Assembly (NCBI GenBank): GCA_033675265.1
Contig: JAUJYZ010000504.1
Span: forward strand, 684,128-748,127
Origin: Actinostola sp. cb2023
Lineage: Eukaryota > Cnidaria > Anthozoa > Actiniaria > Actinostolidae
Direction of reading: 5' to 3'
Length of the DNA stretch: 64,000 nucleotides
The translations under genes were made by a program, and so were the position numbers. The notes beneath the pieces are model-generated. The model did no database searches. It was given only the letters and a program-made list of their open reading frames with translations, and was not told the DNA's origin. The stretch's first letter is position 1; every line of letters starts with the position of its first letter. Below are positions 3,001 through 62,255 of this stretch, piece after piece.

Positions 3001-5162
3001 AAATGGATGAATGAGTAAATGAATGAGTGAACAAATGGATGAATGAGTAAATGAATGAGTGAACAAATGGATGAATGAGTAAATGAATGAGTGAACAAAT
3101 GGATGAATGAGTAAATGAATGAGTGAACAAATGGATGAATGAGTAAATGAATGAATGAGTGAACAAATGGATGAATGAGTAAATGAATGAGTGAACAAAT
3201 GGATGAATGAGTAAATGAATGAGTGAACAAATGGATGAATGAGTAAATGAATGAGTGAACAAATGGATGAATGAGTAAATGAATGAGTGAACAAATGGGA
3301 TGAATGAGTAAATGAATGAGTGAACAAATGGATGAATGAGTAAATGAATGAGTGAACAAATGGATGAATGAGTAAATGAATGAGTGAACAAATGAATGAA
3401 TGAGTAAATGAATGAGTGAACAAATGGATAATGAATGACTTACCTTTTTTCAAAGGGACCTGGCACTACGAAACTGTATGGTCGGTTCGGGTCACGTGGT
3501 CAAACTTGGTGATTTTGGTATGACGAGGGCAATGTATGATTCAGATTACTACAGATTTGGACGAAAAGGTACTTGATCTGTTTTATGATAGAAAATATCT
3601 CTTTTCCTTCCTTCGGTGTAACTTCCGGGAAAAGTAGCATTTTTAAGGAATCAGATTCAGCCAGGCATCTCTTTGGGATTCCTGTGGTGCCTGTCCTTTC
3701 ACACAGGGATACCGCAATAATAAAATAGAAGTGATTACAAAGAAAATTGGGCTTCCTGTGGACTTTATTTTCAAAATACTTATTTACCTTAATATACTTA
3801 TTACAGTTGGTTTACAAATACAGTAATATACATGTAAATATAATGGTACTAATTTGCGGTACTCCCAGTCGGTCACCTACTGATTTTTTCTGTAGTTTCC
3901 TGTGGACTTGTCTAGGTACGTGCACTAGTAATTGCTTGATTTCATAAGACGTCATTTCCGGTCTCGTGAGGAATTTTCATCAGCTGAATTCCACCTTTTC
4001 AATAGAATACTCTCTGCTTGATAGCACATGGAGGGCAGTGTTTGCCCGTCATTTGAAGCAAATAATGAGATTCAAGGAGTTTTAACAGCTGATTGAAACC
4101 AAGCAATTCCGCACACAAGAATATCGTTCTATTAAAGCAATCATCGCCTCAGGATAAATGTGACTGAACTCAATGCTAAGTTTTTGCTCATTTTTTCAAT
4201 CATTTTGTCTTTCTTTACAAAGGCATGCTTCCAGTGCGCTGGATGGCCCCAGAATCCCTTGCAGACGGATTATTTACTACGAAATCAGACGTGTGGGGCC
4301 TGGGGGTCACTGTATGGGAGCTTTGCACTCTGGGTAGCTTTCCGTACCAGGGCCTCTCGAACTCAGAGGTCGTTGTATTCGTAAAAGAGGAGAATATTAT
4401 GGATATGCCACGTGACTGTACCATTCAACTGTAAGTAGACGAAATTTATTGAAACTATTCAAAGTATTCGCTTTAAATAATCGCACAGCGGCCATCTTGG
4501 ATTTGACGTCACGATTTTTATCATGAAAACGAGGTCACGCGTGGTAGCGTTGCTTGAGGCGGACATGTTAGCTCAACAGTGATTTTTGTAACGCGTGACC
4601 GAACTGTCCATCTGAAGCAACGCTTCCACGCGTGACCTAGTTAGTTTTCATGATAAAAATCATGACGTCAAATCCAAGATGGCCGCTGCGCGATTGAAAC
4701 ACTTCGTAACCGACTGACTTTGTGATATATTTTCTAAAAGTTTATTATTATTATTATTTTCTAAGAGTTGAACTATTACATCAGTGCTGGCAAATAGACC
4801 CTAACGATCGCCCTGAGCCAATCACGATCATGGAATTTCTAACCAATTACAGCAAGATGATCACGCCCTGTTTAAATGCACCAATCGCTAGCATAGCCGC
4901 TGATGACGATTTGCTTGACACTGACAGCTTTACCGCTGACCAACCAGCAGCGAGCCCGCGACGTATCTCGCGCAAATTTTCACCCCCTATGAGGCCTCCT
5001 AAGTGGTCGCCCATGTCCACGCCCACGTTCACGCGTGTTCAAAGGCTCTCAGCTGCCAGAAGACTGTCGACGGACCAGTTAAGGACGATGATCGAAAGTC
5101 TGACGCCACCGGGAAGCCCGTCGCTTGGTGGGAAAGTGGAACGCAAAGAGGAGTTTGTATAA
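1..5162 (+). CDS. Insulin-receptor-like receptor tyrosine kinase, kinase domain and C-tail (5' part outside window)
   Basis: Seven exons: 1-59, 732-852, 1881-1939, 2014-2105, 3456-3568, 4223-4430, 4766-5162 (TAA). All junctions are GT-AG and phases agree. Together they encode most of a tyrosine kinase domain: VAVKTLK with the beta-3 lysine in exon 1, FLSEAETM with the alpha-C glutamate in exon 2, [11 protein letters not shown] catalytic loop across the 2105/3456 junction, GDFGMTR, an activation loop MYDSDYYR with the Y-x-x-x-Y-Y pattern of insulin/IGF receptors, then [11 protein letters not shown] and the [10 protein letters not shown] helix. Known family role: the trans-autophosphorylated loop activates a membrane receptor for insulin-like ligands. 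A Ser/Pro-rich cytoplasmic tail of about 95 residues follows. The glycine loop, membrane segment and ectodomain lie before base 1, so ligand type cannot be judged. The ATGs inside exons are not starts. Introns are loaded with repeats. InsR-type kinase is firm; orthology is inferred. Confidence 0.93.
122..790 (+). repeat. Tandem ~175-bp duplication carrying decayed copies of a kinase exon
   Basis: Four head-to-tail copies begin at about 122, 294, 470 and 644, each with 'cctcccgtccctaa' or a close variant followed by 'gagaagagtctgg'. The last copy runs into the real exon at 732-852. The second and third hold degraded versions of its start (ctgagtgatgc, ctgaaaccat, cactcacaa) with frame-breaking changes. 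The first keeps only 'aacaagaatatcg'. So intron plus the exon's 5' part was duplicated, and only the 3'-most copy stayed coding. Confidence 0.8.
870..1222. repeat. 63-bp minisatellite, about 5.5 copies
   Basis: The unit contains ccttggtccattaccatg and cagcactgtttattagacc. The copies are nearly identical, and one has a 4-6 bp insertion. The period is divisible by three, which explains the spurious open frames on both strands. It lies in the receptor intron 853-1880. Confidence 0.9.
1312..1500. mobile_element. MITE with 18-bp perfect terminal inverted repeats
   Basis: The ends are agtcgttttcgtatgagt and its exact complement at 1483-1500. Internal sequence has two 'caaccaatca' CCAAT-like motifs. 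A partial copy sharing the left end and the CCAAT motifs lies at 34893-35010, so the element is dispersed. Confidence 0.8.
1725..1816. repeat. Hairpin-forming inverted repeat
   Basis: Arms of about 43 bp (aacccaggggta... to ...tacccctgggtt) with a few mismatches around a short loop; 'ctgtcgctcgttactcgctc' pairs with its complement at about 1780-1802. It ends 64 bp before receptor exon 1881-1939. Probably a small foldback element. Confidence 0.8.
2143..2248. mobile_element. 106-bp foldback element with 9-bp target duplication
   Basis: Arms of 41 bp are perfectly complementary (catgctcgaggatccagc... to its complement ending 2248) around a loop of short 'acttcgga' repeats. The element is exactly flanked by the direct repeat ttattacga at 2134-2142 and 2249-2257. 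A 9-bp duplication is typical of Mutator-like insertions, but the superfamily is inferred. Confidence 0.85.
2408..3436. repeat. 32-bp minisatellite, about 32 copies
   Basis: The unit is 'gaatgagtgaacaaatgg' followed by 'atgaatgagtaaat', with very few variants. The minus strand has no stop in any frame of the unit, and 32 is not a multiple of three, so three long overlapping spurious frames arise. It fills the receptor intron 2106-3455 and ends about 20 bp before the acceptor at 3454-3455. Confidence 0.97.
4479..4697. mobile_element. Foldback/MITE with ~75-bp inverted repeats
   Basis: Left arm aatcgcacagcggccatc... and right arm ...gatggccgctgcgcgatt pair over about 75 bp with few mismatches, including 'ttttcatgataaaaat' and 'cacgcgtgacc' blocks. 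It lies in the receptor intron 4431-4765. No clear target duplication was seen. Confidence 0.85.
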
Positions 5163-37286: not shown

Positions 37287-40192
37287 TCATCCTACGCGTG
37301 CGTCAACAATCCTGGCCTCACTATTCTGGCCCAGTCTCTTGAGGTGTCCGATATGCGCGCCAAGGGCCTGGGTAAAAGTAGGGAGGTAGTTGTATTTGAT
37401 ATTGAACTCTTCGCAGGTCTTGCGCACGATGGGGGTGATCTGGGGATAGTGGTTCTGACAGATTCCTGGGAACAAGTGATGAGTCGTCTGATGGTTGAGA
37501 GCGCCTGGGGACGAATATACAGTACGTTTACGTATTACACCACAGGAAGCCCGTCACATACTTCAACAAACCTGTAAAAGTGTTCCAGAACCAGTTGTCC
37601 GTGCAGTAGTCGAGGGTGGTCAGAATTTGGAGCTCTGCCCTACAAAACAAGACGAGATAAACTAAGGTATAAAGAATGTATTTTTGTTCGGTTTACTTGG
37701 TATGTAAGTCCCTTATTGTGAGATGGGCGCGAGGGCAGAGCTGGTAGCTAGGGGCGGGGAATTCAAGCAGGGACATTATTTTTTTAAGTTGAATTGAGTT
37801 GACCATCTCACCAATCCCGCGGGACGTGATTATCTTCATTTGGTTGTGGCCATTCAACCTGTAAAGAGGCAAGGAAACAAACCCGTTAAGTATCTCAATG
37901 GAGAGCTCTCCCGTCCATCCAATCAACGTTAATTGAACATTGAAAGAAAGGATGTAGATGATACGATGGGAGGAGAAGGAACGGAAACACCGCCATACCT
38001 CGCTGACTACGTGAGAGATCTGGAAGATAAGAGCGAGCCAGTAGCTTGCAGTAGCATCGGCAACAACGTTAATCCATAACTATAACAATGAACGGAAAGA
38101 AAAACAATCGCTTAGAAAATGTAACGGCGAGAGAAGACATTTTAGTAACAGTTGTGCGGAATTATGGCTACGGGAACATCCAAGGAACATCCAAGGAACA
38201 TCCAAGGAACATCCAAGGAACATCCAAGGAACATCCAAGGAACATCCAAGGAACATCCAAGGAACATCCAATTAAGGAACATCCAAGGAACATCCAAGGA
38301 ACATCCATGGAACATCCATGGAACATCCAAGGAACATCCAAGGAACATCCATGGAACATCCAAGGAACATCCAAGGAACATCCAAGGAACATCCAAGGAA
38401 CATCCAAGGAACATCCAAGGAACATCCAAGGAACATCCAAGGAACATCCAAGGAACATCCATGGAACATCCATGGAACATCCAAGGAACGTCCAAGGAAC
38501 GTCCATGGAACATCCAAGGAACATCCAAGGAACATCCAAGGAACATCCAAGGAACATCCAAGGAACATCCATGGAACATCCATGGAACATCCAAGGAACA
38601 TCCATGGAACATCCAAGGAACATCCAAGGAACATCCAAGGAACATCCAAGGAACATCCATGGAACATCCAAGGAACATCCATGGAACATCCAAGGAACAT
38701 CCAATTAAGGAACATCCAATTAAGGAACATCCATGGAACATCCAAGGAACATCCAATTAAGGAACATCCAAGGAACATCCATGGAACATCCAAGGAACAT
38801 CCAATTAAGGAACATCCAAGGAACATCCATGGAACATCCAAGGAACATCCAATTAAGGAACATCCAAGGAACATCCAAGGAACATCCATGGAACATCCAA
38901 GGAACATCCAATTAAGGAACATCCAAGGAACATCCAATTAAGGAACATCCAAGAAACATCCAAGGAACATCCAAGGAACATCCAAGGAACGTCCAAGGAA
39001 CATCCAAGGAACATCCATGGAACATCCAAGGAACATCCAATTAAGGAACATCCAAGGAACATCCAAGGAACATCCAAGGAACATCCAAGGAACATCCAAG
39101 GAACATCCAAGGAACGTCCAAGGAACGTCCAAGCAACATCCAAGGAACGTAAGGAACATCAAAGGAACATCCAAAGAACGCCCAAGGAACATCCAAGGAA
39201 CGCCCAAGGAACATCCAAGGAACGTCCGAGGAACATCCCAAGGAACGTCCAAGGAACGTCCAAGGAACGTCCAAGGAACGTCCAAGGAACATCCAAGGAA
39301 CGCCCAAGGAACATCCAAGGAACGTCCAAGGAACATCCAAGGATCATCCAAGAAACGTCCAAGGAACGTCCAAGGAACATCCAAGGAACATCCAAGCAAC
39401 GTCCAAGCAACGTCCAAGGAACATCCAAGGAACATCCAAGGAACGTCCAAGGAACGTCCAAGGAACGTCCAAGGAACATCCAAGGAACATCCAAGGAACA
39501 TCCAAGGAACGCTCAAGGAACATCCAAGGAACGTCCAAGGAACATCCAAGGAACGTCCAAGGAACGTCCAAGCAACATCCAAGGAACGTCCAAGGAACGT
39601 CCAAGGAACATCTAATGTACTTATGAATGTGTACTTGCGTGACGGTTTTGCCGAACATAAACTTTTCCTTTACAGAGAAGATTTCAGGAAGAAAAACTTA
39701 CCACTCGTGATAACGGCAAAAAGTAGAGAGGAATGACAAATCGTTGGATCAGGAATGCAATTTTCCCAGCCCAAAACAGCACAGAATTAAACATCGATAA
39801 AGAATTCATTGGCATCGTGCCTGCAAGGACAAATTGTAACAATGATGAAATCGAATTAGCAACGACGGTCGAGGAAAGAATAAGCGATTTGTAGATCCAG
39901 GAAATGGCCGTGTGATTTAGTGGAAGGGAGAGGTTCGAGTTTAACAAACTTTTCAAGCAGCTTCTCTTCGGCTGCATACAGCAAATGGAAGCTTGTGAAG
40001 AGGTTCTCAGTGATGGGAATTGAGGGAGAGAGAGAGAGAGAGAGAGAGAGTGAGAGAGTGAGAGAGAGAGAGAAGAGAAAAAGGGAAGGTAAAGGTAATG
40101 GATATCACTTACTGTTGTATCCTTTTAGTACCACAACACAGTCTTGTAGTCGGGTTTTTAGAGAAAGCTATGATAATAATAATAATAAAAAA

Positions 40193-41481: not shown

Positions 41482-44400
41482 AGCATTGTACACACTAAGA
41501 AAGGTATTTGGGATCAAATCTTTGCTAGCCTACATTGGTTACCTGGAGTATCCACACGTAGTAAGAACATCCAAGCATAAAGTTATGCGTACTGATACCA
41601 ATCGCCTTCCACACCCATGGTGAGTGAGTAATTGCAAAATGACTAAAATATCAAAGTGTAGCATGCATTCAGTTATTTTAAATCACAATATTGTTGTTGT
41701 TGTTGTCATCATTGTTGCTGTAGTTGTTGTCATCGTCGTTACTGTTATGGTTGTTGTTGTCATCATTGTTGCTGTAGTTGTTGTCATTGTCGTTATTGTT
41801 ATGGTTGTTGTCATCATTGTTGCTGTAGTTGTTGTCATTGTCGTTATTGTTATGGTTGTTGTTGTCATCATTGTTGCTGTAGTTGTTGTCATTGTCGTTA
41901 CTGTTATGGTTGTTGTTGTCATCATTGTTGCTGTAGTTGTTGTCATTGTCGTTACTGTTATGGTTGTTGTTGTCATCATTGCTGCTGTAGTTGTTGTCAT
42001 TGTCGTTATTGTTATGGTTGTTGTTGTCATCATTGTTGCTGTAGTTGTTGTCATTGTCGTTATTGTTATGGTTGTTGTTGTCATCATTGTTGCTGTAGTT
42101 GTTGTCATTGTCGTTACTGTTATGGTTGTTGTTGTCATCATTGTTGCTGTAGTTGTTGTCATTGTCGTTATTGTTATGGTTGTTGTTGTCATCATTGTTG
42201 CTGTAGTTGTTGTCATTGTCGTTACTGTTATGGTTGTTGTTGTCATCATTGTTGCTGTAGTTGTTGTCATTGTCATTACTGTTATGGTTGTTGTTGTCAT
42301 CATTGTTGCTGTAGTTGTTGTCATTGTTGTTACTGTTATGGTTGTTGTTGTCATCATTGTTGCTGTAGTTGTTGTCATTGTCATTACTGTTATGGATGTT
42401 GTTGTCATCATTGTTGCTGTAGTTGTTGTCATTGTCGTTACTGTTATGGTTGTTGTTGTCATCATTGTTGCTGTAGTTGTTGTCATTGTCGTTACTGTTA
42501 TGGTTGTTGTTGTCATCATTGTTGCTGTAGTTGTTGTCATCGTCATTACTGTTATGGTTGTTGTTATCATCATTGTTGCTGTAGTTGTTGTCATCGTCGT
42601 TATTGTTACTGTTATGGTTGTTGTTGTCATCATTGTTGCTGTAGTTGTTGTTGTCATCATCACTGTCATCATGATTGATGGTTAATTATATTGTTCCTGT
42701 TCTTAATGTTGACATCATTCTAGTTGTTGTTATTGTTTTCATTGTCATAGTCGTTCATAATCATTAATGATATGTTGTTGATGTTTACCTCGAGTCATGA
42801 ACATGAGTCATAGCAATGATAGCTCCAATCCATCCTGTCACGAGAGCAGCAACAGTCGACCACAGTAAACTACTGGACAGCCATGATAACTAAAATAAGA
42901 ATAACATATAACTATATTAATACATTAATATAATAATAATAATAATACTACTACTACTACTGCTACTGCTACCGCTACCGCTACCGCTACCGCTACTACT
43001 ACTACTTTATTTCTTCAATAATAAAAAGAGCCTTTCAGAAAATCTCAATGCTCTTTACATAACAATTACATTTTAACGACCATTGGAATAAATGAGTGAT
43101 CATATTTACCTGTGCATAACATAACGTGTAAAAAAGTGAAGGAAATAAAATAAGACGCAGCCACATCCACTCGGGATCCTTGGGATCCTGCAAGGTACAA
43201 AAATGGACAACAATGATGAGTTATTCATTCATTCAGTCAATTGCAATGGCTGACTGACTACAATTATCTTCAGCACAAATACTAGCTGTGCCACTTAATT
43301 TGCCCCAGAGGATGACTTGTGACTAGACAGGGAGGAGTGTAGGAAGGGAGGAGGGGATGAATGAATGAAAGGGAGGAGGGGATGAATGAAGGGAGGAGGG
43401 GATGAATGAATGGAGGAGGGGATGCATGAAGGGAGGAGGGGATGCATGAAGGGAGGAGGGGATGCATGAAGGGAGGAGGGGATGAATGAAATGTAGGAGG
43501 GGGTGAATGAAGGGAGGAGGGGGTGAATGAAGGGAGGAGGGGGTGCATGAAGGGAGGGAGGGTGGGGAGGGATGAATGAAGGGAGGGGGGGAGGGAATGA
43601 ATGAATGGAGGAGGGGGATGAATGAAGGAAGGAGGGGATGAATGAAGGGAGGAGGGGATGAATGAAGGGAGGAGGGGATGAATGAAGGGAGGAGGGGATG
43701 AATGAAGGGAGGAGGGGATAAATGAATGGAGGAGAGGATGCATGAAGGGAGGAGAGGATTAATGAATGGAGGAGCTAGAGGATGCATGAATGGAGGAGAG
43801 GATGCATGAAGGGAGGAGAGGATGCATGAAGGGAGGAGAGGATGAATGAATGGATGGAGGAGAGGATGAATGAATGGAGGAGAGGATGAAGGGAGGAGGA
43901 TGAATGAAGGGAGGAGAGGATGCATGAAGGGAGGAGAGGATGCATGAAGGGAGGAGAGGATGCATGAAGGGAGGAGAGGATGAATGAAGGGAGGAGAGGA
44001 TGCATGAAGGGAGGAGAGGATGCATGAAGGGAGGAGAGGATGCATGAAGGGAGGAGAGGATGAATGAATGGAGGAGAGGATGAAGGGAGGAGGATGAATG
44101 AATGGAGGAGAGGATGCATGAAGGGAGGAGAGGATGCATGAAGGGAGGAGAGGATGCATGAAGGGAGGAGAGGATGCATGAAGGGAGGAGAGGATGCATG
44201 AAGGGAGGAGAGGATGCATGAAGGGAGGAGAGGATGCATGAAGGGAGGAGAGGATGCATGAAGGGAGGAGAGGATGCATGAAGGGAGGAGAGGATGCGTG
44301 AAGGGAGGAGAGGATGCATGAAAGGAGGAGAGGATGAATGAATGGAGAAGAGGATGCATGAAGGGAGGAGGTTTAAAGGTTTAAAGGAGAGGATGAATGA

Positions 44401-45894
44401 ATGGAGGAGAGGATGCATAAATGGAGGAGAGGATGCATGAAGGGAGGAGAGGATGCATGAAGGGAGGAGAGGATGCATGAAGGGAGGAGAGGATAAATGA
44501 AGGGAGGAGAGGATGCGTGAATGGAGGAGAGGATGCATGAAGGGAGGAGAGGATGCATGAAGGGAGGAGAGGATGAATGAAGTGAGGAGAGGTAGAGGAG
44601 AGGATGTATGAAGGGAGGAGAGGATGAATGAAGGGAGCAGGAGATCAAGGAGAGGAGGAAGGGAGGAGAGAAGGAGGTGGGAGCTAGGGAGAGAGCGTCA
44701 ACTTGAAGCGAAGGAAGGAGGGGGTCGAGGAGAAGAGGAGAAAACGAGGGTGGAGGGAGAAAGCATCAACTTAAAGTGCAAACCTTATTGTTGTCCTTGA
44801 AGTACTTTTGAACTCTGTCTCGTACAGTTTTAAAGAAAGGCCTGAAAGAAAACAGATTCATTGTATCCAGTCATGTGGAATACTCTGTGCCAAAAATAGC
44901 ACAAAGATATCATGGATAGTGAAAACTGAAAATGTCAGGTCATACCCAGTTTCAGGATAAGTAGGATATTTGTTTGACACCAATTCTCCAACACAGTACT
45001 TCTCTAAGACTCTGCAAGAACACATTAAAATATAAAAATCAGGTTACAATAATTTATTAATCTTCTGAAAAAATATACAGTAAATTGTGCCACCCGGCCA
45101 TGCAGGACTGAATCTCTCCTCCTTTGACAATGTCGTGCATGTTGTGGTGTATCCAGAACCATGATATATACCAGAACTTTCTGGGGCAAATTAAGTACAC
45201 AGCTGCCATAATGCATGACTGAATGAATGAATGAGTGACTGACTCAGAGTCATGTCAGTCATGTCAGTCAGTCAGTCAGCTGTCTATCAGTCATTCAGTC
45301 AATATACAGTGATTGCTTGGACTTAGTCTAATTCTTGTTGAATACCATCCACAACTGTTGGTTTCGTGATCAAACCAGGAAGTTTCAGTATTCAAATACT
45401 ACAATAATTATTATTGTAAATTTGCATATTTAAAAACCGTTGCTGTTCAAGGTCTACATACTTTGGTGCTTTCTCACTGAAAGCGTGATATGACTCAAAG
45501 ACCATGGTTACATCTCGTCCTGCAGCCATCAACAGTACATCTCTACCACCAGGATGACGATCGATGAACTTTGTCACATCGTAAACCTAACAAAGTATTC
45601 TAACCTCGATTAAAATGCAAAACATATATTATGCAAATTTCCCAGAGAATATCGTCTGGTAGATTTTGACATTCTCATTGATTTCAGAGCGGTTTTATTC
45701 CATGTCCGGTTGCAAAATGTTGTAGTTTTTGCTGTTTGTGGTTAAGGAGGTAGAAAATCTAACGAACGAGTCGTGCAACTGGTATTACAATGTCTAACCA
45801 AGTGTATCCTAACCTTTCCACGAATTGCCACATAAGCTTGCTGTTTGGTGTTCCTTTGACGAAGTTCTTCCCACGTAAAAGTCTTTTTGCTCAT
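37287..45894 (-). CDS. Cytochrome b5-fused front-end fatty acid desaturase (complete, 15 exons)
   Basis: Exons in coding order: 45814-45894, 45462-45586, 44946-45011, 44784-44841, 43110-43187, 42789-42889, 41543-41642, 40614-40682, 40364-40453, 40113-40167, 39702-39820, 37999-38079, 37812-37858, 37572-37639, 37287-37504. All are GT-AG and in phase; 451 residues. An N-terminal cytochrome b5 domain has the heme motif HPGG at 38-41. The three iron-binding histidine boxes are HDSSH (167-171), HTFGHH (204-209) and QTTHH (385-389); Gln opening the third box is diagnostic of front-end desaturases. Hydrophobic segments flank the boxes ([21 protein letters not shown]). Family role: an ER membrane di-iron enzyme that inserts a double bond between an existing one and the carboxyl end of polyunsaturated acyl chains. 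The HHPYTN stretch resembles delta-5 enzymes, but regioselectivity cannot be read from sequence. The ATG at 45894 follows open promoter-like sequence. Confidence 0.95.
38172..39612. repeat. 11-bp minisatellite 'ggaacatccaa', about 130 copies with variant domains
   Basis: The left half mixes ggaacatccaa, ggaacatccat and 13-14 bp ggaacatccaattaa units. From about 39100 rightward, ggaacgtccaa and ggaacgcccaa dominate. Both strands stay open in several frames. Intronic in the desaturase gene (38080-39701), ending about 90 bp from the exon at 39702. Confidence 0.97.
40026..40251. repeat. (GA)n and (TAA)n microsatellites abutting a desaturase exon
   Basis: GA repeats at 40026-40080 and TAA repeats at 40172-40251 bracket the 55-bp exon 40113-40167. 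On the coding strand the TAA run supplies the T-rich tract directly before the acceptor. Confidence 0.9.
40830..41060. mobile_element. Degraded relative of the 'attgcgcgcaa' MITE
   Basis: Shares 'gcaacattgcgcgcaac', 'gttgcagaggtaaacac' and 'gcaatatt' blocks with the element at 6351-6536. Intronic in the desaturase gene. Confidence 0.6.
41690..42660. repeat. 54-bp minisatellite, about 18 copies
   Basis: Unit built of gtt/gtc trinucleotides ('gttgttgttgtcatcattg', 'ttgctgtagttgttgtc'). Its 18-codon period keeps both strands open (Val/Ile-rich or Thr/Met-rich). Intronic between desaturase exons 41543-41642 and 42789-42889; not a gene. Confidence 0.95.
43330..44650. repeat. 20-bp minisatellite 'ggatgcatgaagggaggaga', about 65 copies
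   Basis: A left domain with 'ggaggggatgaatgaaggga' changes near 43740 to 'ggagaggatgcatgaaggga'. Strongly purine-biased. Intronic between desaturase exons 43110-43187 and 44784-44841. Confidence 0.95.
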
Positions 45895-53573: not shown

Positions 53574-55682
53574 CCTCCATGTTTTGAACACAAAGATGAA
53601 CAATAAAACTTTAAAAACTGTTCACACTTAACTTTTTGTAACACCATGACTGGTGGTCATAATCCATATTTTAACCAATTTCTGACACCACGAAGTGTCC
53701 AAAAACGTAACGAAAAACCTCTTGGTTATTTTCAATGGTACATTATTCCCACTTGGATTATTACTGATGATGCAAGATAATTGAGCTAAAATTTCACAAG
53801 AAATATGACAAGACTTCAGGGCAACAAAGTTTTAAGGGTTGAATGACATCAATAACCCATTAATCCTCTTTTTATGGCAGACAAATTTAATAACAGTACC
53901 CACAGCAGGCAAACATTAGGAGAAAGGGCCTGCCATGGCACAGCTGAAATACTGGAACTCATTGAGGACATGTAGCTTTCTGTCTTTCTCTGTGGAATTT
54001 GCTATATAAATGTTTGCCAGGGCTGTAACAAGTTACTTTTCTGAAATTGCTAACTGGATTTTTGCATTATGCTTAACAACAAATAATATTTGTAACACCA
54101 TGAACGTTAATTGTTGACAGTTTTAAAGTCCATGTTAAACAATTTCCGACACTTATTGATGAGGAAACCATTCACCATTTCACTGATCAGTTATCAGGGG
54201 CAATAATTTCAGGTATTCATTTTTCCAATCAGTGCATTTTCAATGCAAGTTACTAATAATTCAAGATGATAACACTAACGAAATTTGGGAGAGAGCAAAC
54301 AGTCCAGCTATGGGGGCTATGATTTTGAATATCAAACAGAATATAAATTTTATTTTGGAGATGGTGTAATGTAATGAAGCAAAGGGGAAAAACTTTTCAC
54401 ATCCTTTTTATTTGAACCACTACAGTAATTTTACATTTTTATCTTGGGGGCATATTTGTTCTTCATATTTTGCAGTGGAGTTGGTCTAGGATTGTGCAGA
54501 GAGATGTTTTTGCCCTTGCAGGTGCCACTTTAACCAGAATTATTGTTGTTGAGAATCTTTAGTAACCTTAATTTCTCTTCTACCCACTGGTATACAATGC
54601 ATGCAATGATGCTTTACATTATTCCTAAAATGATAGTGAAACTTCAAGGGCAATCTTCAAACTCCTATTTATCACAGTGTTTTTCCTAACCAACTGTTGA
54701 GAAGTATAAACATCCACAATAAACCTTTAAAGTCTTTCAAATGATTTCAAAATATTTTCAAATGTTTTTTTTTGGCTTGATATTGCAATCTGCAAAATTA
54801 CAGTTTTCGGGCAAGAATATACATGCAGATAAAGACAGTTGCTCTGGAAATAAAACTCATGTTCTGCAGAAGGTAACACTGCATAGGCTACCAAGAAGGA
54901 TTTCAGCAGTGATGAAGACTTGAGCAAAGAAGAAAATGCATCTGCTACAAAGAAGTTTGCAGCCTGTTATAGTGAACACTTGATTGTTGTTTGTTTCTTA
55001 CTGCATCTACTGTAATCCTCTTTAGGGACAGATTTTTGTATTCAAGCACCTTTGAGTTATTACAGAAGAAGCAGTGCAAGTATACATGTACACAGTCTTC
55101 GGAATGATTTGAAAACGTTTTAACAATTTTATCTTGATATTACAATAAAGAAAATTACAGTTTTTGAGAAAGATTATTGGGAAATACTTAAGCTCGGACT
55201 AAAACTTAAGTTGTAAAGAAGGCAACATCTCGAGAGCATAGGCTACAAAGGCTACCAAGGAGGAGTCATGTTAATACTCAAGCTTAGAAAAAAAGAAAAA
55301 ACATGTGCTACAAAGAGGTTTGCAGTGTTAGAAGTGTTTGTTTCTTACTCCATCTACATGTAATCCTTTAAAGTTTTATAATTGAAACAGTTTCAAGTTA
55401 TTGCAGATGGACAACTTGACTTGTGTATAGAGGGTTATTCTGGCCACTACGTGTCTGGGTTGTTGTCTGCTAGGCAAGCCTTGTTATCTAACTCAGACAT
55501 GGAAGAGAATTATTTCCATTCTCTTTGGAAGAAAAAAAGGAACCAGAGCATGAACATGAATAACACAATTGTTTTTGAAACATAACATTTCTGGGTTTGC
55601 ATAAAGGTTTTGAATTTCAAACTTATATTTTCAAGCTATGGGTTTACTGAGTAATAAATTGGATACTTGTATTTGGCAATCT
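53574..55682. other. No gene supported; diverged ~350-bp tandem duplication
   Basis: 54720-55010 and 55095-55375 are related (shared 'aaattacagttttcgg'/'aaattacagtttttga', 'cataggctac', 'gtttgtttcttact'). Short frames at 54741-54923 and 55382-55585 have no splice or domain support. Confidence 0.45.
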
Positions 55683-55960
55683 ACAATCCTGGACAAAAGA
55701 GCTGTTACATGTCCAATGTATTGAACAAAATTTTAGATTTTTTTTTTTTATTCCGTTCTATTGACCCTCTACCCCCCCCCCTCCCCCTAATCAATGTTGT
55801 CTCCAAGACCCCCTCTTGCAACAAAAAGTGTAACACCAACATTGTGAGGGGGAGGGGGGGGGGGGGTGAAAACATCGCAATTACAAAACTTTATCTGTAA
55901 AAGTTAACGTACGTGAATAATTTTGCATACGTAACAGCAGGTTTTGTCCAGGATTGTCTG
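55683..55960. repeat. Inverted 'acaatcctggacaaaa' pair at the left edge of the Rep-carrying element
   Basis: A forward copy at 55683-55722 (acaatcctggacaaaa, then gagctgttacatgtccaatg) faces an inverted copy at 55931-55958. The same forward motif sits at 59900-59938 on the right TIR. Between the pair lie C-rich (55770-55790) and G-rich (55845-55866) tracts that could pair. Confidence 0.7.
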
Positions 55961-56136
55961 TGAACCATGCTAGTTTTTCAAATTGCTTTGGGACATAATA
56001 AAGCTATTGTTTTTGTGATACAATTAGTTGCTACATGCAAGTGAAGATGTGTGATCTTCATAGGTCTGAAATTTGGTTGCTAGGCAACCATATTATTAAT
56101 TAATGACATCATAATGAGTGGAAATTTGAAATTTTA
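55921..56136. repeat. Left terminal inverted repeat
   Basis: Contains ttttgtccaggattgtctg, ctacatgcaagtgaag, cttcataggtct, ggttgctaggcaacca (a palindrome) and cataatgagtggaaat, all recurring in reverse complement at the right end. It ends about 20 bp before the open transposase frame. Confidence 0.88.
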
Positions 56137-56154
56137 ATTGCAAAATGGGACTGA

Positions 56155-57240
56155 AGAACTACTTATTTCCGGACAAAAAAAGCGTATCTTCGTCTGCTTT
56201 TGAAGCAAAGACAGTATGGAGTCCTTGAAATATCCAGAATTTTGAATATTTCGCGTCAAACAGTATACAGATATTCAAAGGAACACGTTGAAAGGGATAT
56301 ATATTCAAAAACTAACAGAAACAGAGGAGGACGTCCCAGGAAAATACGTGCTCGAGACGTACGACACATTCATCGGGCTGTGCGAACCCTGCGAATAGAA
56401 GAAGGTAATTTTACTTCGAAACGTGTGGGTGAAGTTGCTGGGATAGACCATCAAGTGGTGAGCAATCGAACAGTTAGAAGAGCTATGAACAGAGAGGGTT
56501 ATAAGTATTTGCAGGCTCGAAAGAAAGGCATATTGCTTCAAAGGGATCTCAAAAAGCGTTATAACTTTGCCAAGAATGTCAAGAGCAATTATTCACAGCA
56601 ATTATGGAACAATGACATAAATTTTTATTTGGATGGCGTCAGTTTTATTTATAAACGTAACCCCGCAGATCAGGCGAGGGCACCAAGAGGCCGAATCTGG
56701 CGCAAACCTTCGGAAGGTCTCGAAATGGGGTGTACAGCCAAAGGATCGAAGTCAGGAACTGGTGGAAAATTAGTGAAACTAATAGTGGCGATTTCGTATA
56801 GTAAAGGCGTTTTGGACTGTGAACAGTATGAAATCATGAATGGCGCATACTTTAAGAATTACGTGCAAAGAAAATTTCCTCTGTTATTTCAAAAGGCGGA
56901 CAAACCACATTCTAAATTGTGGCTACAGGATGGAGATCCTAGCCAGAATAGTGCTGCCGCAAGGGCTGAGTATGAAAGTTTGGGGGCTATGCTTTTCCCT
57001 ATTCCGCCTCGTAGTCCTGACCTCAACCCAATAGAGAACTGTTTTCACACTGTTCGAAAAGAACTAGAAAGGCAAGCATTACATAATGACATAACACAGG
57101 AGACTTATGAAGAATTTTCAAGACGTGTTTGTCATACAATCAATAACCTATCGATACAAAGCATTGACAATGTCATTGATACAATGAATCAAAGAATTAA
57201 TTTAATCATTGAACGTCAAGGAAGACGGATACGCTACTAA
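56155..57240 (+). CDS. Tc1/mariner DD34E transposase
   Basis: 346 residues from 56200, and the frame is open from 56155. The N-terminal half has two helix-turn-helix regions (LEISRILNISRQTVYRYS and SKRVGEVAGIDHQVVSNRTV) joined by an AT-hook-like GRPRK (45-49). Catalytic residues are D145 (YLDG), D244 (LQDGD) and E279 in SPDLNPIENCF, with exactly 34 residues between the last two, so DD34E. It cuts and pastes DNA at TA by binding the TIRs. Length matches intact family members. No ATG lies between the upstream stop at 56152 and residue 96; an ATG at 56144 opens a different frame, so a small indel or lost leader probably removed the start. The rest is uninterrupted, suggesting recent activity. 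Confidence 0.92.
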   Translation, partial: RTTYFRTKKAYLRLLLKQRQYGVLEISRILNISRQTVYRYSKEHVERDIYSKTNRNRGGRPRKIRARDVRHIHRAVRTLRIEEGNFTSKRVGEVAGIDHQVVSNRTVRRAMNREGYKYLQARKKGILLQRDLKKRYNFAKNVKSNYSQQLWNNDINFYLDGVSFIYKRNPADQARAPRGRIWRKPSEGLEMGCTAKGSKSGTGGKLVKLIVAISYSKGVLDCEQYEIMNGAYFKNYVQRKFPLLFQKADKPHSKLWLQDGDPSQNSAAARAEYESLGAMLFPIPPRSPDLNPIENCFHTVRKELERQALHNDITQETYEEFSRRVCHTINNLSIQSIDNVIDTMNQRINLIIERQGRRIRY

Positions 57241-57491
57241 AAATAACGTGATGTGCATATAAATTGTCCTTGTAAAACTGTATGTACGTACGTACATAGC
57301 TTATAATAAGAATTTTCCTTGTTACAATATCATTTACAAACTTTAATTATTGACCGTAATAGCTGATACCACAGGTATCTCCTGAATCTTAAATATAGGT
57401 AAAACAAAATTGCAATAAAATTGAGTGAAACATTACCAGATTACCTAGTACAAAGTGAACAGAACGATTGTGTTCATAAATGATTAAATGC

Positions 57492-57611
57492 TACCACGGG
57501 TTACCACGGGTTACCACGGAGTACCACGGAGTACCATGGAATGCATATAAAAGACAATGACAGTCATCATATTACTTATATTAATGTGGTTCTCCGTGGT
57601 ACTCCGTGCTT
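57492..57611. promoter_or_regulatory. Iteron-like array: five 10-bp direct repeats plus inverted copies
   Basis: taccacgggt twice, taccacggag twice and taccatggaa run head to tail at 57492-57541. Inverted copies ctccgtggta and ctccgtgctt lie at 57592-57611, so the region can form a stem of about 20 bp. The ~45-base spacer contains TATTAC at 57570-57575, the core of the circular ssDNA virus nicking site, but the full nonanucleotide does not match. Short direct repeats near a Rep gene commonly serve as Rep-binding sites; an origin role is inference. Confidence 0.5.
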
Positions 57612-57812
57612 CGAGAATTTGTATGCATATACAATGTTCGTACATGTTGTAAAAATGGTCAATATGACTGTATATTTCGATTACATGTTATTGGATGTAC
57701 ATTTTGAAGGAACATGTTATGAGTAACACTGCTAACTCGTAGAATGACCATTGTTAGTAAGACTACTTTGCGGGTAGCCTGAATTCAGTCCAGACGGCAG
57801 GGGGTCATCTGC

Positions 57813-59226
57813 TTACTTGCTGGGCTGTAAGATGAGATCGGCAAAACATCGTGGGCATGAAGGAACTATTCGCTGTCGTTGCTCCGGTATTTGAAAATTA
57901 AATGCAAAGATTCTCCAACGACAAGACATCATTTCGCTTTCTCTGTTGTCAATAGATCCTGATTTGATGTAAACCAGTGGGTATTTGCTTGTAGCAAATA
58001 TCGGGGTGTCTCGGATGAATGTAGCGTCTCGAGCAAAGTGAGTTTTAGGCGCTGGTAAATGGACCTCTTGACCCTCAAGCATAAGCAGTAAGTCATGCCA
58101 GGGAATAATTTTTTCTCGCTCCAACGAAAATCGTTCAGGAAAATACACTCCGCGTCTTCAGCGCCCACCCACGCAAAGGTACCGGATGCCGGATTGGTAA
58201 AGGTGTCGTAAATCTTGTTCAGTGGATTCAACAAGAATGTTTTCCCGCAGTTAGCTGCTCCAATTAACATTATGTTTCTGTACTTCCCTCTTCCTTTCTT
58301 CAGTAATTCCTTCACTGCTTCACTGAAAGTATTGCTAGCAATACAGTTATTGACAAATATTTCGTTAGCACACTCTAACCACTGTCCACGACAAGCAGTA
58401 ACACACGGGCTTCGTTGGGCATCTTGTAGAATTTGGATTCTGGATTTCGTCGCACGGTCTAACTTTGCTTTGGCATTATACATCTCCCATGATTTTTGAA
58501 TTAAATGAGGAATGGCAGTGGGTTGCTTGTTAAGAATAAACTCTGCTAGATCTGTTTTTCCTTCTTCACGCTGTTCTTGAGCCAAAGCCAATAGTTCAGT
58601 TTGACTAGTGATGTTCTTAGCGAGTATAATGTCTGACACTAATAAAGGTGTTAGGCGTTTCTTTTTCTTGGGGGTTTGTTTGTGGCTTCATTCGTTCCTT
58701 CTACATCTTCTACATCACTCTCTTCTAAAGACTGCTCCCGCAGTAATGCTCTTCGTTTACTAATCTTTGCTTTGCTCGCACTGTTGGTCCTGGGCTCACT
58801 TGTTAGATCTGGGTGATCGGGGCTTTCTTCGTACACTTCATCAGACTTGGTGACGTACTTCCACGCACTATAATAGTTGTGGTGTACACTGGAGAAGTGC
58901 ACACTTATATGGAAATGATTCCCTAGAAATCTTTTGACGGGCATCCATCTCTGCTTCTTTTCCAACTTTATTGCCATATGATAATGGTATCCCCCTCTTT
59001 CGTGTTCTTCTAAACTACAACACCATTGTTGGACGGAAGCGCTACTAGCCACGGAGAAAGAAAGCTGAACAGCATTAGCAAAATCTAATCTCCTGGGGAA
59101 TTTTTCTAAGTCGGCCTGACTGTAAGTTATGAGATAAACATATCTTGTATCGCGATTGTGCAACAATTCCGCTTCTTCCTGTTGTTCGTCTAAATTGATA
59201 CCACTAGTACCTGGCTGAGAATCCAT
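57813..59226 (-). pseudogene. Rep gene: HUH endonuclease plus SF3 helicase, broken by two frame changes
   Basis: Three consecutive minus-strand frames make one Rep-like gene. Frame 1 (58651-59226, 191 residues, ATG in good context) has rolling-circle motifs: YLITYS near 31-36, HYH at 81-83 (HUH metal site) and YVTK at 124-127 carrying the nicking tyrosine. Frame 2 (57929-58639, no ATG) has the helicase Walker A GAANCGKT and a Walker B-like CIFLNDF. Frame 3 (57813-58148) carries the downstream helicase part with a sensor-like PIFATSKYP. Frame 1 ends near a Lys/Arg-rich C-run; the second break follows Walker B at a run of six T. Order and motifs are those of circular single-stranded DNA virus Reps, which nick and unwind DNA for rolling-circle replication. 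As it stands the gene cannot make full-length protein without frameshifting or undetected splicing. Likely an endogenous viral-type gene; exact family not assigned. Confidence 0.88.
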
Positions 59227-59285
59227 TGGTATTGCTCAGCTCAGTAATGAATACTCGCATGCTATACTGCTATACTTTTCGACAT

Positions 59286-59311
59286 CATTGCGTGACATTT
59301 GTCACGCAATG
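59286..59311. repeat. 26-bp perfect hairpin upstream of Rep
   Basis: cattgcgtgaca and tgtcacgcaatg are perfect 12-bp arms around TT, 60 bp upstream of the Rep start codon. It could be a regulatory or origin hairpin. No nonanucleotide-like loop is present. Confidence 0.6.
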
Positions 59312-59710
59312 TTCTTTCCTGGGCGCAATAGCCCCAAATACGGTAGTACACATTCTGATTGACCAGTCAGTTAGTAACACTACTTTGTGGGCTCCCTGTG
59401 GTAATGTGATTACGTGAAATGCGGGATCTCTGTGGTGTGGTGCAAAGATGAAAGGACAAGATATACTGTTAAGAATATATCAAAACACTGCATATTTATA
59501 GCTTTCTCTAGTCTCCTATCGATACTTCGTGTTTCTAAGTAATGTGTCTATGATTTTACGTTAAATGCTTTGCCTCGATCCAATGTACATATGACATTGC
59601 GAGTGAAGCGAGCGTGTGACGAGCGACGAAGTCGCGAGTGTAATTTAAACTTATTGTAGAATAAATTGCGAGCTTTTTCTAACTTATTTCACATTTTATT
59701 GATTTTTTTT

Positions 59711-59938
59711 AATGAATTTCTAATTTCCACTCATTATGATGTCAATTCTTAATAATATGGTTGCCTAGCAACCACATTTTAGACCTATGAAGACTACACA
59801 TATTCACTTGCATGTAGCAATGAATTATATAACAAAAGGGCAAGCAATAGCTTTATTATTATGTCCAAAAGCAAATTTCAAAACGAGCATGATTCACAGA
59901 CAATCCTGGACAAAAGAGCTGTTACATGTCCAATGTAT
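59711..59938. repeat. Right terminal inverted repeat
   Basis: Reverse complement of the left TIR with scattered substitutions and small indels: atttccactcattatgat, tggttgcctagcaacca, agacctatgaag, cacttgcatgtag, cagacaatcctggacaaaa. Confidence 0.88.
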
Positions 59939-60040
59939 TTTTTCTGAATTTATATTTAACTTTCTATGTAAACATCCGTTTCTGGAAATTATGTGCATTT
60001 TTACAAAAAGCAAAATGTATAGATTTATGAAAAATGCTTA

Positions 60041-60310: not shown

Positions 60311-60454
60311 TATATGGACCACGCCTTCCATAATGGTATACATACTAAGAAACTGCTTCATGTGAAAATATGCTGAAGAACTGATCCAGGTCAGTAATCC
60401 GACCTAATACGATATAGACGGTGCAATGTGAAAATATATCCGTGAATTCGATTC

Positions 60455-61340
60455 GATTTATAATAATAATAATAATCATCATCATCCGATCATCATCATC
60501 ATCATTATTATTGTTATCGTTATTATTATTATTATATTGTGGTTACTATTATTATTGTCATTATTATCATCATCATCATCATCATCATCATCCGATCATC
60601 ATCATCATCATTATTATTGTTATCGTTATTATTATTATTATATTGTGGTTACTATTATTATTGTCATTATTATCATCATCATCATCATCATCATCATCCG
60701 ATCATCATCATCATCATTATTATTGTTATCGTTATTATTATTATTATATTGTGGTTACTATTATTATTGTCATTATTATCATCATCATCATCATCATCCG
60801 ATCATCATCATCATCATTATTATTGTTATCGTTATTATTATTATTATATTGTGGTTACTATTATTGTCATTATTATCATCATCATCATCATCATCATCAT
60901 CCGATCATCATCATCATCATTATTATTGTTATCGTTATTATTATTATTATATTGTGGTTACTATTATTATTGTCATTATTATCATCATCATCATCATCAT
61001 CATCATCCGATCATCATCATCATCATTATTATTGTTATCGTTATTATTATTATTATTATCATGTGGTTCATATTATTATTGTCATTATTATCATCATCAT
61101 CATATTATCATCATCATCCGATCATCATCATCATCATTATTATTGTTATCGTTATTATTATTATTATATTGTGGTTACTATTATTATTGTCATTATTATC
61201 ATCATCATCATCATCATCATCATCCGATCATCATCATCATCATTATTATTATTATCGTTATTATTATTATTATTGTCCTTATTATCATCATCATCATTGG
61301 TATTATTACAATCATCATCATCAACATTATTATTATTATG
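60455..61340. repeat. Compound ATT/ATC satellite with ~107-bp higher-order unit
   Basis: The unit 'gttatcgttattattatt' - 'attgtggttactattatt' - (atc)n - 'atccgatcatcatc' repeats about 8 times, with (atc)n length varying. Long Ile/Ser/His-rich frames here are artefacts. Confidence 0.95.
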
Positions 61341-62255
61341 TTATCATTATCATTGTTATTATTATTAATCATTATTATGTTATTATTTTAATCATCACCA
61401 TTGGTATTATTATATATATCATGAATAATAATCATCATCATCACTATAATTGTTATCATTAATAATAACTAGACGCTTTACTTACTGATATGTATAGCCT
61501 ATTTGAACTAAATATAGATATCTTAGTGCGATTAAAACGGTGCTTGGTTGCGCGTTGCGTGACTCGGTAGAATAATTATGCTTTCCAGTACCATTTAACG
61601 ATTTTACAAACTCAGCTCAGCGAATCATGAATGACTTGACATAGTTTATTTGGTACCATAAAGCATTACAATGATATTATTATTATTATAATAAATATAT
61701 CCATACAAATACAAATATCGTATACATAAACTAGACATCACAGAATGATTAAAGGGGGACTAGTACGTAAATCGTTCAAAATTTGATTTAGCTGAAACTT
61801 CACTGAAATAATCTCAACGGACCCATACAATCACTGGTAAATTTGTTTCTCAAAAATTCCAATGGGAAGTAATACATTTTTATGAATCTTTAGAAGTGTC
61901 AGTGACGTCACTTACTCAACCCAAACTCAGTTCCATACATTTCTTTGTATTTTGTGATCAAAATATCTGAACGGTTTGTTTAGATAACAGCTCTGCACTG
62001 AAGAAAACTGGTCAGACAATCAATGATCCTAAGCACAAATAATGTAAGAAAACTCCTTCACACAAACGTTTAGCTTCATAGAAATAAAATAATTCAAGAC
62101 ATTAAACATGAAGAAATGTACGGAGCGAAGCCATGTTGATTGTTTGGGTTGAGTACTCGTGACGTTTAATGTAAATATGGATTTATCTCGGCTCGGTGTA
62201 AAAACCTCACAACCGACTGACGTAATTGCTTTTAATTTTCTCTTCACTGCGTGTA
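61341..62255. other. AT-rich sequence, no gene seen
   Basis: Trailing ATT/ATC microsatellite to about 61465, then unique sequence without supported frames. Confidence 0.4.

What the first reader, a model, noticed from the sequence alone, without database searches (positions are those of the whole stretch)
55921..59938. Tc1/mariner-type element carrying a rolling-circle Rep gene as cargo
Seen: inverted repeats over 200 bp enclose both a DD34E transposase (+) and an HUH/SF3 Rep gene (-). Known: Tc1 elements normally carry only the transposase; Rep genes belong to circular ssDNA viruses and related replicons. Inference: a cut-and-paste transposon captured a viral-type Rep, or a Rep replicon uses a Tc1 vehicle, pairing two DNA-mobilising enzymes in one unit. 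I am not aware of this combination being described.
Basis: partly seen in the sequence, partly recalled or inferred. Interest (0 to 1): 0.88.

Follow-up and report, generated by a model that had tools for sequence, protein, structure and literature searches.

The report
Animal jumping gene with virus-like replicase
A cut-and-paste jumping gene in an animal-type genome carries a virus-style DNA-copying enzyme next to its transposase, the two move together as one unit, and related pairs in other genomes appear to have kept the same partnership over long evolutionary time.

Summary
The window's own genome has three more near-identical copies (0-3 substitutions per ~4.25 kb) at unrelated flanks, each with both genes, plus an older copy and what is probably one split copy. 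The real unit is larger than stated: B-internal-B. B is a 273-bp palindromic block (left B 55684-55956; the right B is cut to 39 bp in the window). The two copies complete at both ends read TA|CAATCC...GGATTG|TA, a Tc1-type TA duplication. Solo B copies end the same way (17 of 20).

The pairing is not local. With the window added, their transposase and Rep trees have the same topology. A one-off nested insertion is refuted.

Rep keeps its HUH and SF3 motifs across relatives. Uninterrupted frames of each gene exist in sister copies, though none of the four has both. That Rep replicates a circular or concatemeric form between jumps is inference. A degraded fungal Rep+transposase element is in print (PMC3198968), so this is a new variant.

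The parts
55682..55683 (.). TA at the left edge (half of the TA target duplication)
   Evidence: All four near-identical copies have TA here; L013 and L014 also have TA at the right edge
55684..55956 (+). Left B block: 273-bp palindromic terminal block with inverted Tc1-like tips; also a solo MITE-like repeat
   Evidence: single-strand fold -61.9 kcal/mol, no shuffle control; 45 matching rows, a few of them fragments or reverse self-matches
55957..56137 (+). Left inner terminal inverted repeat
   Evidence: 158/177 identical to the right inner TIR
56200..57240 (+). Tc1/mariner-type DD34E transposase; the first codons lie in another frame in this copy
   Evidence: an uninterrupted 364-aa frame occurs in 1 of 3 other near-identical copies
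57492..57608 (.). Candidate replication origin: 10-bp iterons (TACCACGG..) and a 22-bp hairpin between the convergent genes
   Evidence: (z -5.22); identical in 3 of 3 sister copies, 126/141 in L015
57753..57781 (.). Direct repeat bracketing Rep, copy 1
57813..58148 (-). Rep C-terminal part (third frame)
   Evidence: P0242 residues 342-436 match 58115-57831
57929..58639 (-). Rep SF3 helicase part (second frame; its last ~60 codons are out of frame)
   Evidence: Walker A conserved in 33/33 relatives; Parvo_NS1 or PPV_E1_C matches in relatives
58651..59226 (-). Rep HUH endonuclease part (first frame)
   Evidence: motifs LITY, HYH and YVTK; PF23343 in 29 of 33 sequences scanned, this ORF included; model pLDDT 82.7
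59286..59311 (.). Short palindrome upstream of the Rep start
   Evidence: 37/37 conserved in L015
59370..59398 (.). Direct repeat bracketing Rep, copy 2
59709..59900 (-). Right inner terminal inverted repeat
59901..59939 (+). Right B block, truncated to its first 39 bp in this copy
   Evidence: complete at the right end of L013 and L014

Best explanation
A family of Tc1/mariner-type elements in animal-type genomes that encode two DNA-mobilising enzymes, a DD34E transposase and an HUH-SF3 Rep. Shown: the unit is B - inner TIR - Tnp(+) - origin-like hairpin - Rep(-) - inner TIR - B. It inserts at TA (within CTAG) and has moved recently and whole. Well supported: the gene pair is an old, co-inherited combination. 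Inferred: transposase cuts at the outer tips of B. Rep nicks the central hairpin of a circular or concatemeric copy and multiplies it by rolling-circle replication. Because each B carries tips on both sides, the transposase can cut B-internal-B units out of a concatemer and reinsert them, which would keep the two B blocks identical while the inner TIRs diverge.
For: Mobility as a unit: 3 other copies at unrelated flanks, 0-3 substitutions. TA|...|TA in the 2 copies complete at both ends. Solo B with TA on both sides in 17 of 20 complete non-composite loci. Both genes in 5 of 5 unsplit copies: W, L012-L014 and L015. With the window, Tnp and Rep trees share 4 of 4 splits; patristic Mantel r 0.948, reached by 1 of 5040 permutations (the observed one); 0 of 5000 random Rep septets. 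Rep under constraint: motif I 27/27, HUH 29/31, YxxK 31/32, Walker A 33/33. Replication half: iterons plus hairpin, z -5.22. In the two complete copies, left and right B differ by 1-2 of ~270 while inner TIRs are 89% alike.
Against: No circle, concatemer, ssDNA or Rep activity was observed. The geminivirus-like TCATATTAC in the loop is at chance level in the window (5 found, 3.4 expected). B homogeneity could come from gene conversion or from recent acquisition of B. None of the four near-identical copies has both frames uninterrupted. Linkage in other genomes is inferred from equal contig length, not seen in DNA. Equal lengths alone are weak to moderate evidence: over all rows, 6 at offset 0 against a mean of 2.2 and a maximum of 9 over 120 offsets; with contigs of 2500 bp or more, 6 against a mean of 0.76, with 1 of 600 offsets reaching 6. 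The 24,302-bp and 4.14-Mb contigs do not by themselves prove adjacency.
Confidence: 0.6

Rival explanations
1. Rep is an old passenger: captured once, carried along by the transposase, with no role in moving or copying the element.
For: B solo copies occur without Rep. The window's Rep is split over three frames. A direct repeat brackets Rep like a capture scar.
Against: HUH, YxxK and Walker motifs are kept across relatives. Uninterrupted 470-aa Rep frames occur in 2 of 3 sister copies. Linked pairs span the sampled trees under midpoint rooting.
Confidence: 0.17
2. The B blocks are parvovirus-like terminal hairpins. Rep works by rolling hairpin on a linear single strand and the transposase is only the integrase.
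For: B is a palindrome at both ends of the two complete copies. Parvo_NS1 matches 22 of 33 sequences at E up to 0.1.
Against: B has the same absolute orientation at the 5 left and 6 right ends where it can be read, old copies included; no flip-flop. Most B copies fetched are solo and TA-flanked. Rep motifs I and III look CRESS-like (motif definitions).
Confidence: 0.13
3. Rep acts in trans on the transposition process (for example opening excision gaps or regulating the transposase) rather than replicating the element.
For: Fixed partnership with the transposase. SF3 helicases unwind DNA (recalled).
Against: The nickase motifs are kept and an origin-like hairpin lies inside the unit.
Confidence: 0.08
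4. One-off nested insertion of an endogenous viral Rep into a Tc1 element.
For: The bracketing direct repeat; the broken frames in the window.
Against: All unsplit internal-bearing copies found carry both genes. Congruent trees in other assemblies.
Confidence: 0.02

Closest known systems
Geminivirus-like transposon of Tuber melanosporum (Liu et al. 2011, PMC3198968, section 8 read)
   Same: Rep-like ORF and transposase ORFs inside TIRs, repeated in a eukaryotic genome
   Different: Fungus; Rep described as geminivirus-like; 37-bp TIRs with no obvious TSD; Rep interrupted, one transposase ORF interrupted and one truncated; transposase type not given in the section. Here: relatives in named animals, DD34E, TA duplication, uninterrupted frames in some copies, co-inheritance across relatives
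Tc1/mariner DD34E transposons
   Same: Catalytic triad spacing, Tc3-type HTH, TIRs, TA duplication
   Different: As a rule 1-3 kb, longer variants known, some over 4 kb (PMC10379824 passages); normally one transposase gene (recalled). Here about 4.5 kb complete, with Rep and terminal palindromic B blocks
Teratorn (piggyBac-like transposon fused with a herpesvirus genome; PMC10175614, start of abstract and passages)
   Same: A cut-and-paste transposon joined to a viral replication system
   Different: 180 kb, piggyBac and herpesvirus; no mention of CRESS or 'Rep protein' found in its text
Helitrons (and Replitrons, recalled)
   Same: HUH endonuclease in a eukaryotic transposon
   Different: No DDE transposase, TIRs or TA duplication; the Rep itself transposes (recalled)
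Parvovirus-like repeats of acorn worm and planarian (PMC3198968 section 8)
   Same: SF3 Rep/NS1-like genes in animal repeats
   Different: Capsid-type ORF in the acorn worm repeat; no transposase described
Bdelloid rotifer Terminons (PMC6431247 passages)
   Same: A eukaryotic transposable element that can carry a rolling-circle Rep gene
   Different: Giant retroelements up to 40 kb, not DDE transposons
Bacterial composite transposons (recalled)
   Same: Two copies of a block that moves alone flank an internal segment
   Different: No protein of note is coded in B; the transposase lies in the internal segment

Membership tests
Tc1/mariner (DD34E) | DDE transposase with 34 residues between the last two acids | tested here: met
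   In the 120 listed relatives: D145 120/120, D244 119/120, E279 120/120; spacing 34 in 118 of 119 with both
Tc1/mariner (DD34E) | Tc3/paired-like HTH and DDE_3 domain | tested here: met
   DDE_3 in 18/18, HTH_Tnp_Tc3_2 in 17/18 of the A2 members at E up to 0.01; in the window's ORF the HTH score, 28.1 bits, is below the 31.5 cut-off
Tc1/mariner (DD34E) | TIRs and TA target-site duplication | tested here: met
   2 of 2 copies with both ends complete; not visible in the window copy, whose right end is truncated; no empty site was shown
Tc1/mariner (DD34E) | Single-gene element, as a rule 1-3 kb | tested here: not met
   Two genes, about 4.5 kb in L013 and L014; length alone is not strict, longer variants are known
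CRESS-type HUH-SF3 Rep | Motifs UUTU, HUH and single-Tyr YxxK, followed by an SF3 helicase | tested here: met
   motif definitions from PMC6668415 passages
CRESS-type HUH-SF3 Rep | HUH fold by structure comparison | tested here: inconclusive
   Confident model whose strand and helix order fits by my reading; fold search did not complete. Best sequence match of relative P0242 to a solved Rep is weak (1l2m, E 0.075)
CRESS DNA virus / parvovirus | Capsid gene | tested here: not met
   ORFs inside 55684-59939 beyond Tnp and Rep are all under 100 aa; they were not searched for capsid domains
CRESS DNA virus / parvovirus | Relatives among viral contigs | tested here: inconclusive
   No confirmed relative of Rep in IMG/VR, but these scans start from short peptide patterns
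Parvovirus-like terminal hairpins | Both orientations (flip/flop) of the terminal palindrome | tested here: not met
   5 left and 6 right readable ends share one absolute orientation
Rolling-circle replicon | Rep nicks an origin and circular or ssDNA forms exist | not testable with these tools
   Only an origin-like hairpin was found

The most novel reading that the evidence does not exclude
A two-enzyme life cycle for a eukaryotic transposon. Excised or concatemeric copies are amplified by the element's own rolling-circle Rep from an internal hairpin origin. The Tc1 transposase then cuts B-internal-B units at the double-sided tips of each B block and reinserts them at CTAG. The element would be a capsid-less, plasmid-like replicon that uses Tc1 transposition as its integration step, and a bridge between CRESS replicons and DNA transposons.
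Probability: 0.35. Interest if true: 0.93.

Novelty: new variant of a known kind. Interest (0 to 1): 0.8.

Why it matters
Cut-and-paste transposons are thought to gain copies only through host replication or gap repair (recalled). A Tc1-type lineage that appears to have kept its own replication initiator over deep divergence suggests a third route, self-encoded amplification, and gives a recently active system on which to test it. It also shows a stable joining of a DDE transposase with a viral-type Rep in animal-type genomes, which bears on how capsid-less replicons, CRESS viruses and transposons exchange parts. Some 'endogenous Rep' genes in corals and echinoderms may belong to such elements rather than to virus fossils.

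Tried and rejected
Rejected: one-off nested insertion (see above). Segmental duplication as the source of the copies: flanks of W, L012, L013 and L014 (1.5 kb each side) do not match each other, except one dispersed repeat shared by L013's left and the window's right flank. A 40-bp 'extra right end' at 55683-55722 first looked like a neighbouring truncated copy; it is the start of the left B block.

Led nowhere: viral contigs for Rep, Tnp (30) and the TIR tip (87): none. Genome contigs for Rep (42) and tip (88): none. phages (33): none. phrogs (16): only weak hits. Pfam on six other window ORFs (76): no family, so the host was not identified; the protein of 4722-5159 has no PDB match at E 0.001 (68). 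The SF3 model was poor (pLDDT 70, the Walker region below 60). L013's empty site: the joined flank is not matched closely in the held flanks (8 mismatches of 32 at best). Ten paper searches listed no animal Tc1-Rep element, judged by titles and starts of abstracts plus passages of five papers; the library lacks most subscription journals and preprints, and two papers asked for by DOI are not held.

Rows dropped: P0297 (no contig length); P0303 and Rep hits under 340 aa (except P0001, P0003, P0009) and Tnp hits under 300 aa (except P0121) from the trees. The tool lists only the best 120 of 580, 1275 and 704 protein hits.
Full report
CHECK. The transposase ORF (346 aa) matches DDE_3 and, below cut-off, the Tc3 HTH. 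The 120 listed relatives keep a DD34E triad: D145 120/120, D244 119/120, E279 120/120, spacing 34 in 118 of 119. The Rep is spread over three frames; a 441-aa relative, P0242, matches it collinearly in three pieces (residues 6-137, 158-343, 342-436). Among 32 relatives, HUH motif I is kept in 27 of 27 with letters there, motif II in 29 of 31, motif III in 31 of 32; Walker A in 33 of 33 of a second set (last G or A allowed). At E up to 0.1, Pfam's REP_ORF2-G2P matches 29 of 33 sequences (window ORF included), Parvo_NS1 22 and Gemini_AL1 7. The HUH part gives a confident model, pLDDT 82.7, with strands and helices in an order that fits the HUH fold by my reading; the fold library did not complete.

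BOUNDARIES. The window's own genome (424 Mb, 1594 contigs; unnamed) has 6 left ends and 5 right ends of this element, a lower bound. L012, L013 and L014 match the window from about 55680 to 59939 at 99.7%. Their flanks do not match, apart from a dispersed repeat shared by L013's left and the window's right flank. L013 and L014 continue past 59939 with a full second copy of 55684-55956, and L012 with part of one. That 273-bp block, B, is an imperfect palindrome (67% to its own reverse complement; -61.9 kcal/mol as a single strand, no shuffle control) with Tc1-like tips on both sides. So the complete unit is B-internal-B with the B blocks in direct orientation, flanked TA|...|TA in both complete copies.

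MOBILITY. The four copies differ pairwise by 0-3 substitutions and 8-12 gap positions over about 4.25 kb, so they moved recently and as a unit. Uninterrupted frames exist for Rep (470 aa, 2 of 3 sister copies) and for transposase (364 aa, 1 of 3); they match the relatives over nearly their whole length. No single copy of the four has both. Many differences are short indels, which may be assembly errors (inference). L015 is older, with both genes, a gap in Tnp and large insertions. L016 (Tnp half with left B) and L047 (Rep half with right B) lie on one contig, same strand, in element order and about 21 kb apart, so probably one split copy. B alone is common: 45 matching rows, a few of them fragments or reverse self-matches. 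Of 22 non-composite loci fetched, 20 are complete and 17 of these have TA on both sides, all reading CTA|B|TAG (two, L041 and L042, share their flanks and may be one locus); 3 of 20 do not. 21 of 22 hold no internal sequence (the exception, L043, is the L047 locus). Composite and solo B therefore share ends and target.

FAMILY. Rep relatives (580 and 704 hits) include named cnidarians (Actinostola, Porites, Paramuricea, Montipora, Acropora) and a sea cucumber. Before the third protein search I had noted that P0009 (Rep) and P0130 (Tnp) share a contig length of 4,142,029. I expected Reps close to P0009 on contigs of the Tnps close to P0130; this was written down only afterwards. Of four such Tnp contigs, two (3811 and 3951 bp) appeared among listed Reps and two (4047 and 526,928 bp) did not. 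In all, 6 pairs share a length, among 182 Rep and 120 Tnp rows. Lengths alone are weak over all rows (control mean 2.2, maximum 9) and moderate for contigs of 2500 bp or more (mean 0.76, 1 of 600 offsets reaching 6). The trees are strong: with the window as seventh pair, Rep and Tnp trees share 4 of 4 splits, patristic Mantel r 0.948 (1 of 5040 permutations, the observed one), and 0 of 5000 random Rep septets do as well. The identity-based Mantel gives r 0.963, 3 of 5040. One Tnp split has low support (0.41). With midpoint rooting the linked pairs span the whole sampled trees, so the pairing looks ancestral to the sampled clade.

MECHANISM. Shown: unit mobility with TA duplication. Well supported: long co-inheritance. 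Inferred: cutting at the outer B tips by the transposase, and replication by Rep. Supporting signs for replication are 10-bp iterons and a strong hairpin between the convergent genes, identical in 3 of 3 sister copies, and left and right B blocks that differ by 1-2 of about 270 (plus 3 gap positions) in the two complete copies while the inner TIRs are 89% alike. A concatemer cut at double-sided B tips would explain both. Gene conversion or late acquisition of B are not excluded. The loop's TCATATTAC is at chance level. A parvovirus-like hairpin cycle is disfavoured by the constant B orientation at 5 left and 6 right ends.

AGAINST. A direct repeat brackets Rep (0 of 60 shuffles as good); it could mark how Rep was first captured. 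The L015 Rep half is about 96% identical to the window while its Tnp half is 88-92% and its B 80%, so the halves have not evolved at one rate or have recombined. Adjacency in other genomes was not seen in DNA, and no empty site was shown.

KNOWN. Liu et al. 2011 (section 8 read) describe a truffle repeat with a Rep-like and transposase ORFs in 37-bp TIRs, broken and without obvious TSD. Bdelloid rotifer retroelements can carry Rep (PMC6431247 passages). Ten searches of the held library listed no animal Tc1-Rep family. I therefore call it a new variant of a known kind. The host was not identified; 'animal-type' rests on the named relatives.

Noticed in passing
55684-55956; L021-L046: B is an abundant 273-bp palindromic MITE-like repeat; 17 of 20 complete solo copies read CTA|B|TAG, and four solo copies are 97-98% identical to the window's B, so it moved recently, probably in trans.
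   Followed up: partly
56076-56088 and 59760-59772: Both inner TIRs carry a GTTGC..GCAAC palindrome resembling an RFX X-box (recalled consensus); possible promoter or host-factor site.
   Followed up: no
57753-57781 and 59370-59398: 29-nt direct repeats bracket the Rep gene 1617 bp apart, beyond chance, and are kept in the older copy L015; they may be Rep sites or a capture scar.
   Followed up: partly
L015 (C1575:125600-135500): Older copy: the Rep half is ~96% identical to the window, the Tnp half 88-92%, B 80%; insertions of about 0.6 and 2.5 kb.
   Followed up: partly
L016 and L047 (contig C555): Tnp half and Rep half about 21 kb apart in element order and orientation, looking like one composite split by a large insertion.
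   Followed up: partly
left flanks of W, L012, L014: Three of four recent insertions have AATCTA immediately left of the element, hinting at target preference beyond TA.
   Followed up: no
window 2121-3453, 38088-39736, 41624-44538, 60421-61462: Very long simple or tandem repeats with multi-frame open reading frames (artefactual ORFs).
   Followed up: no
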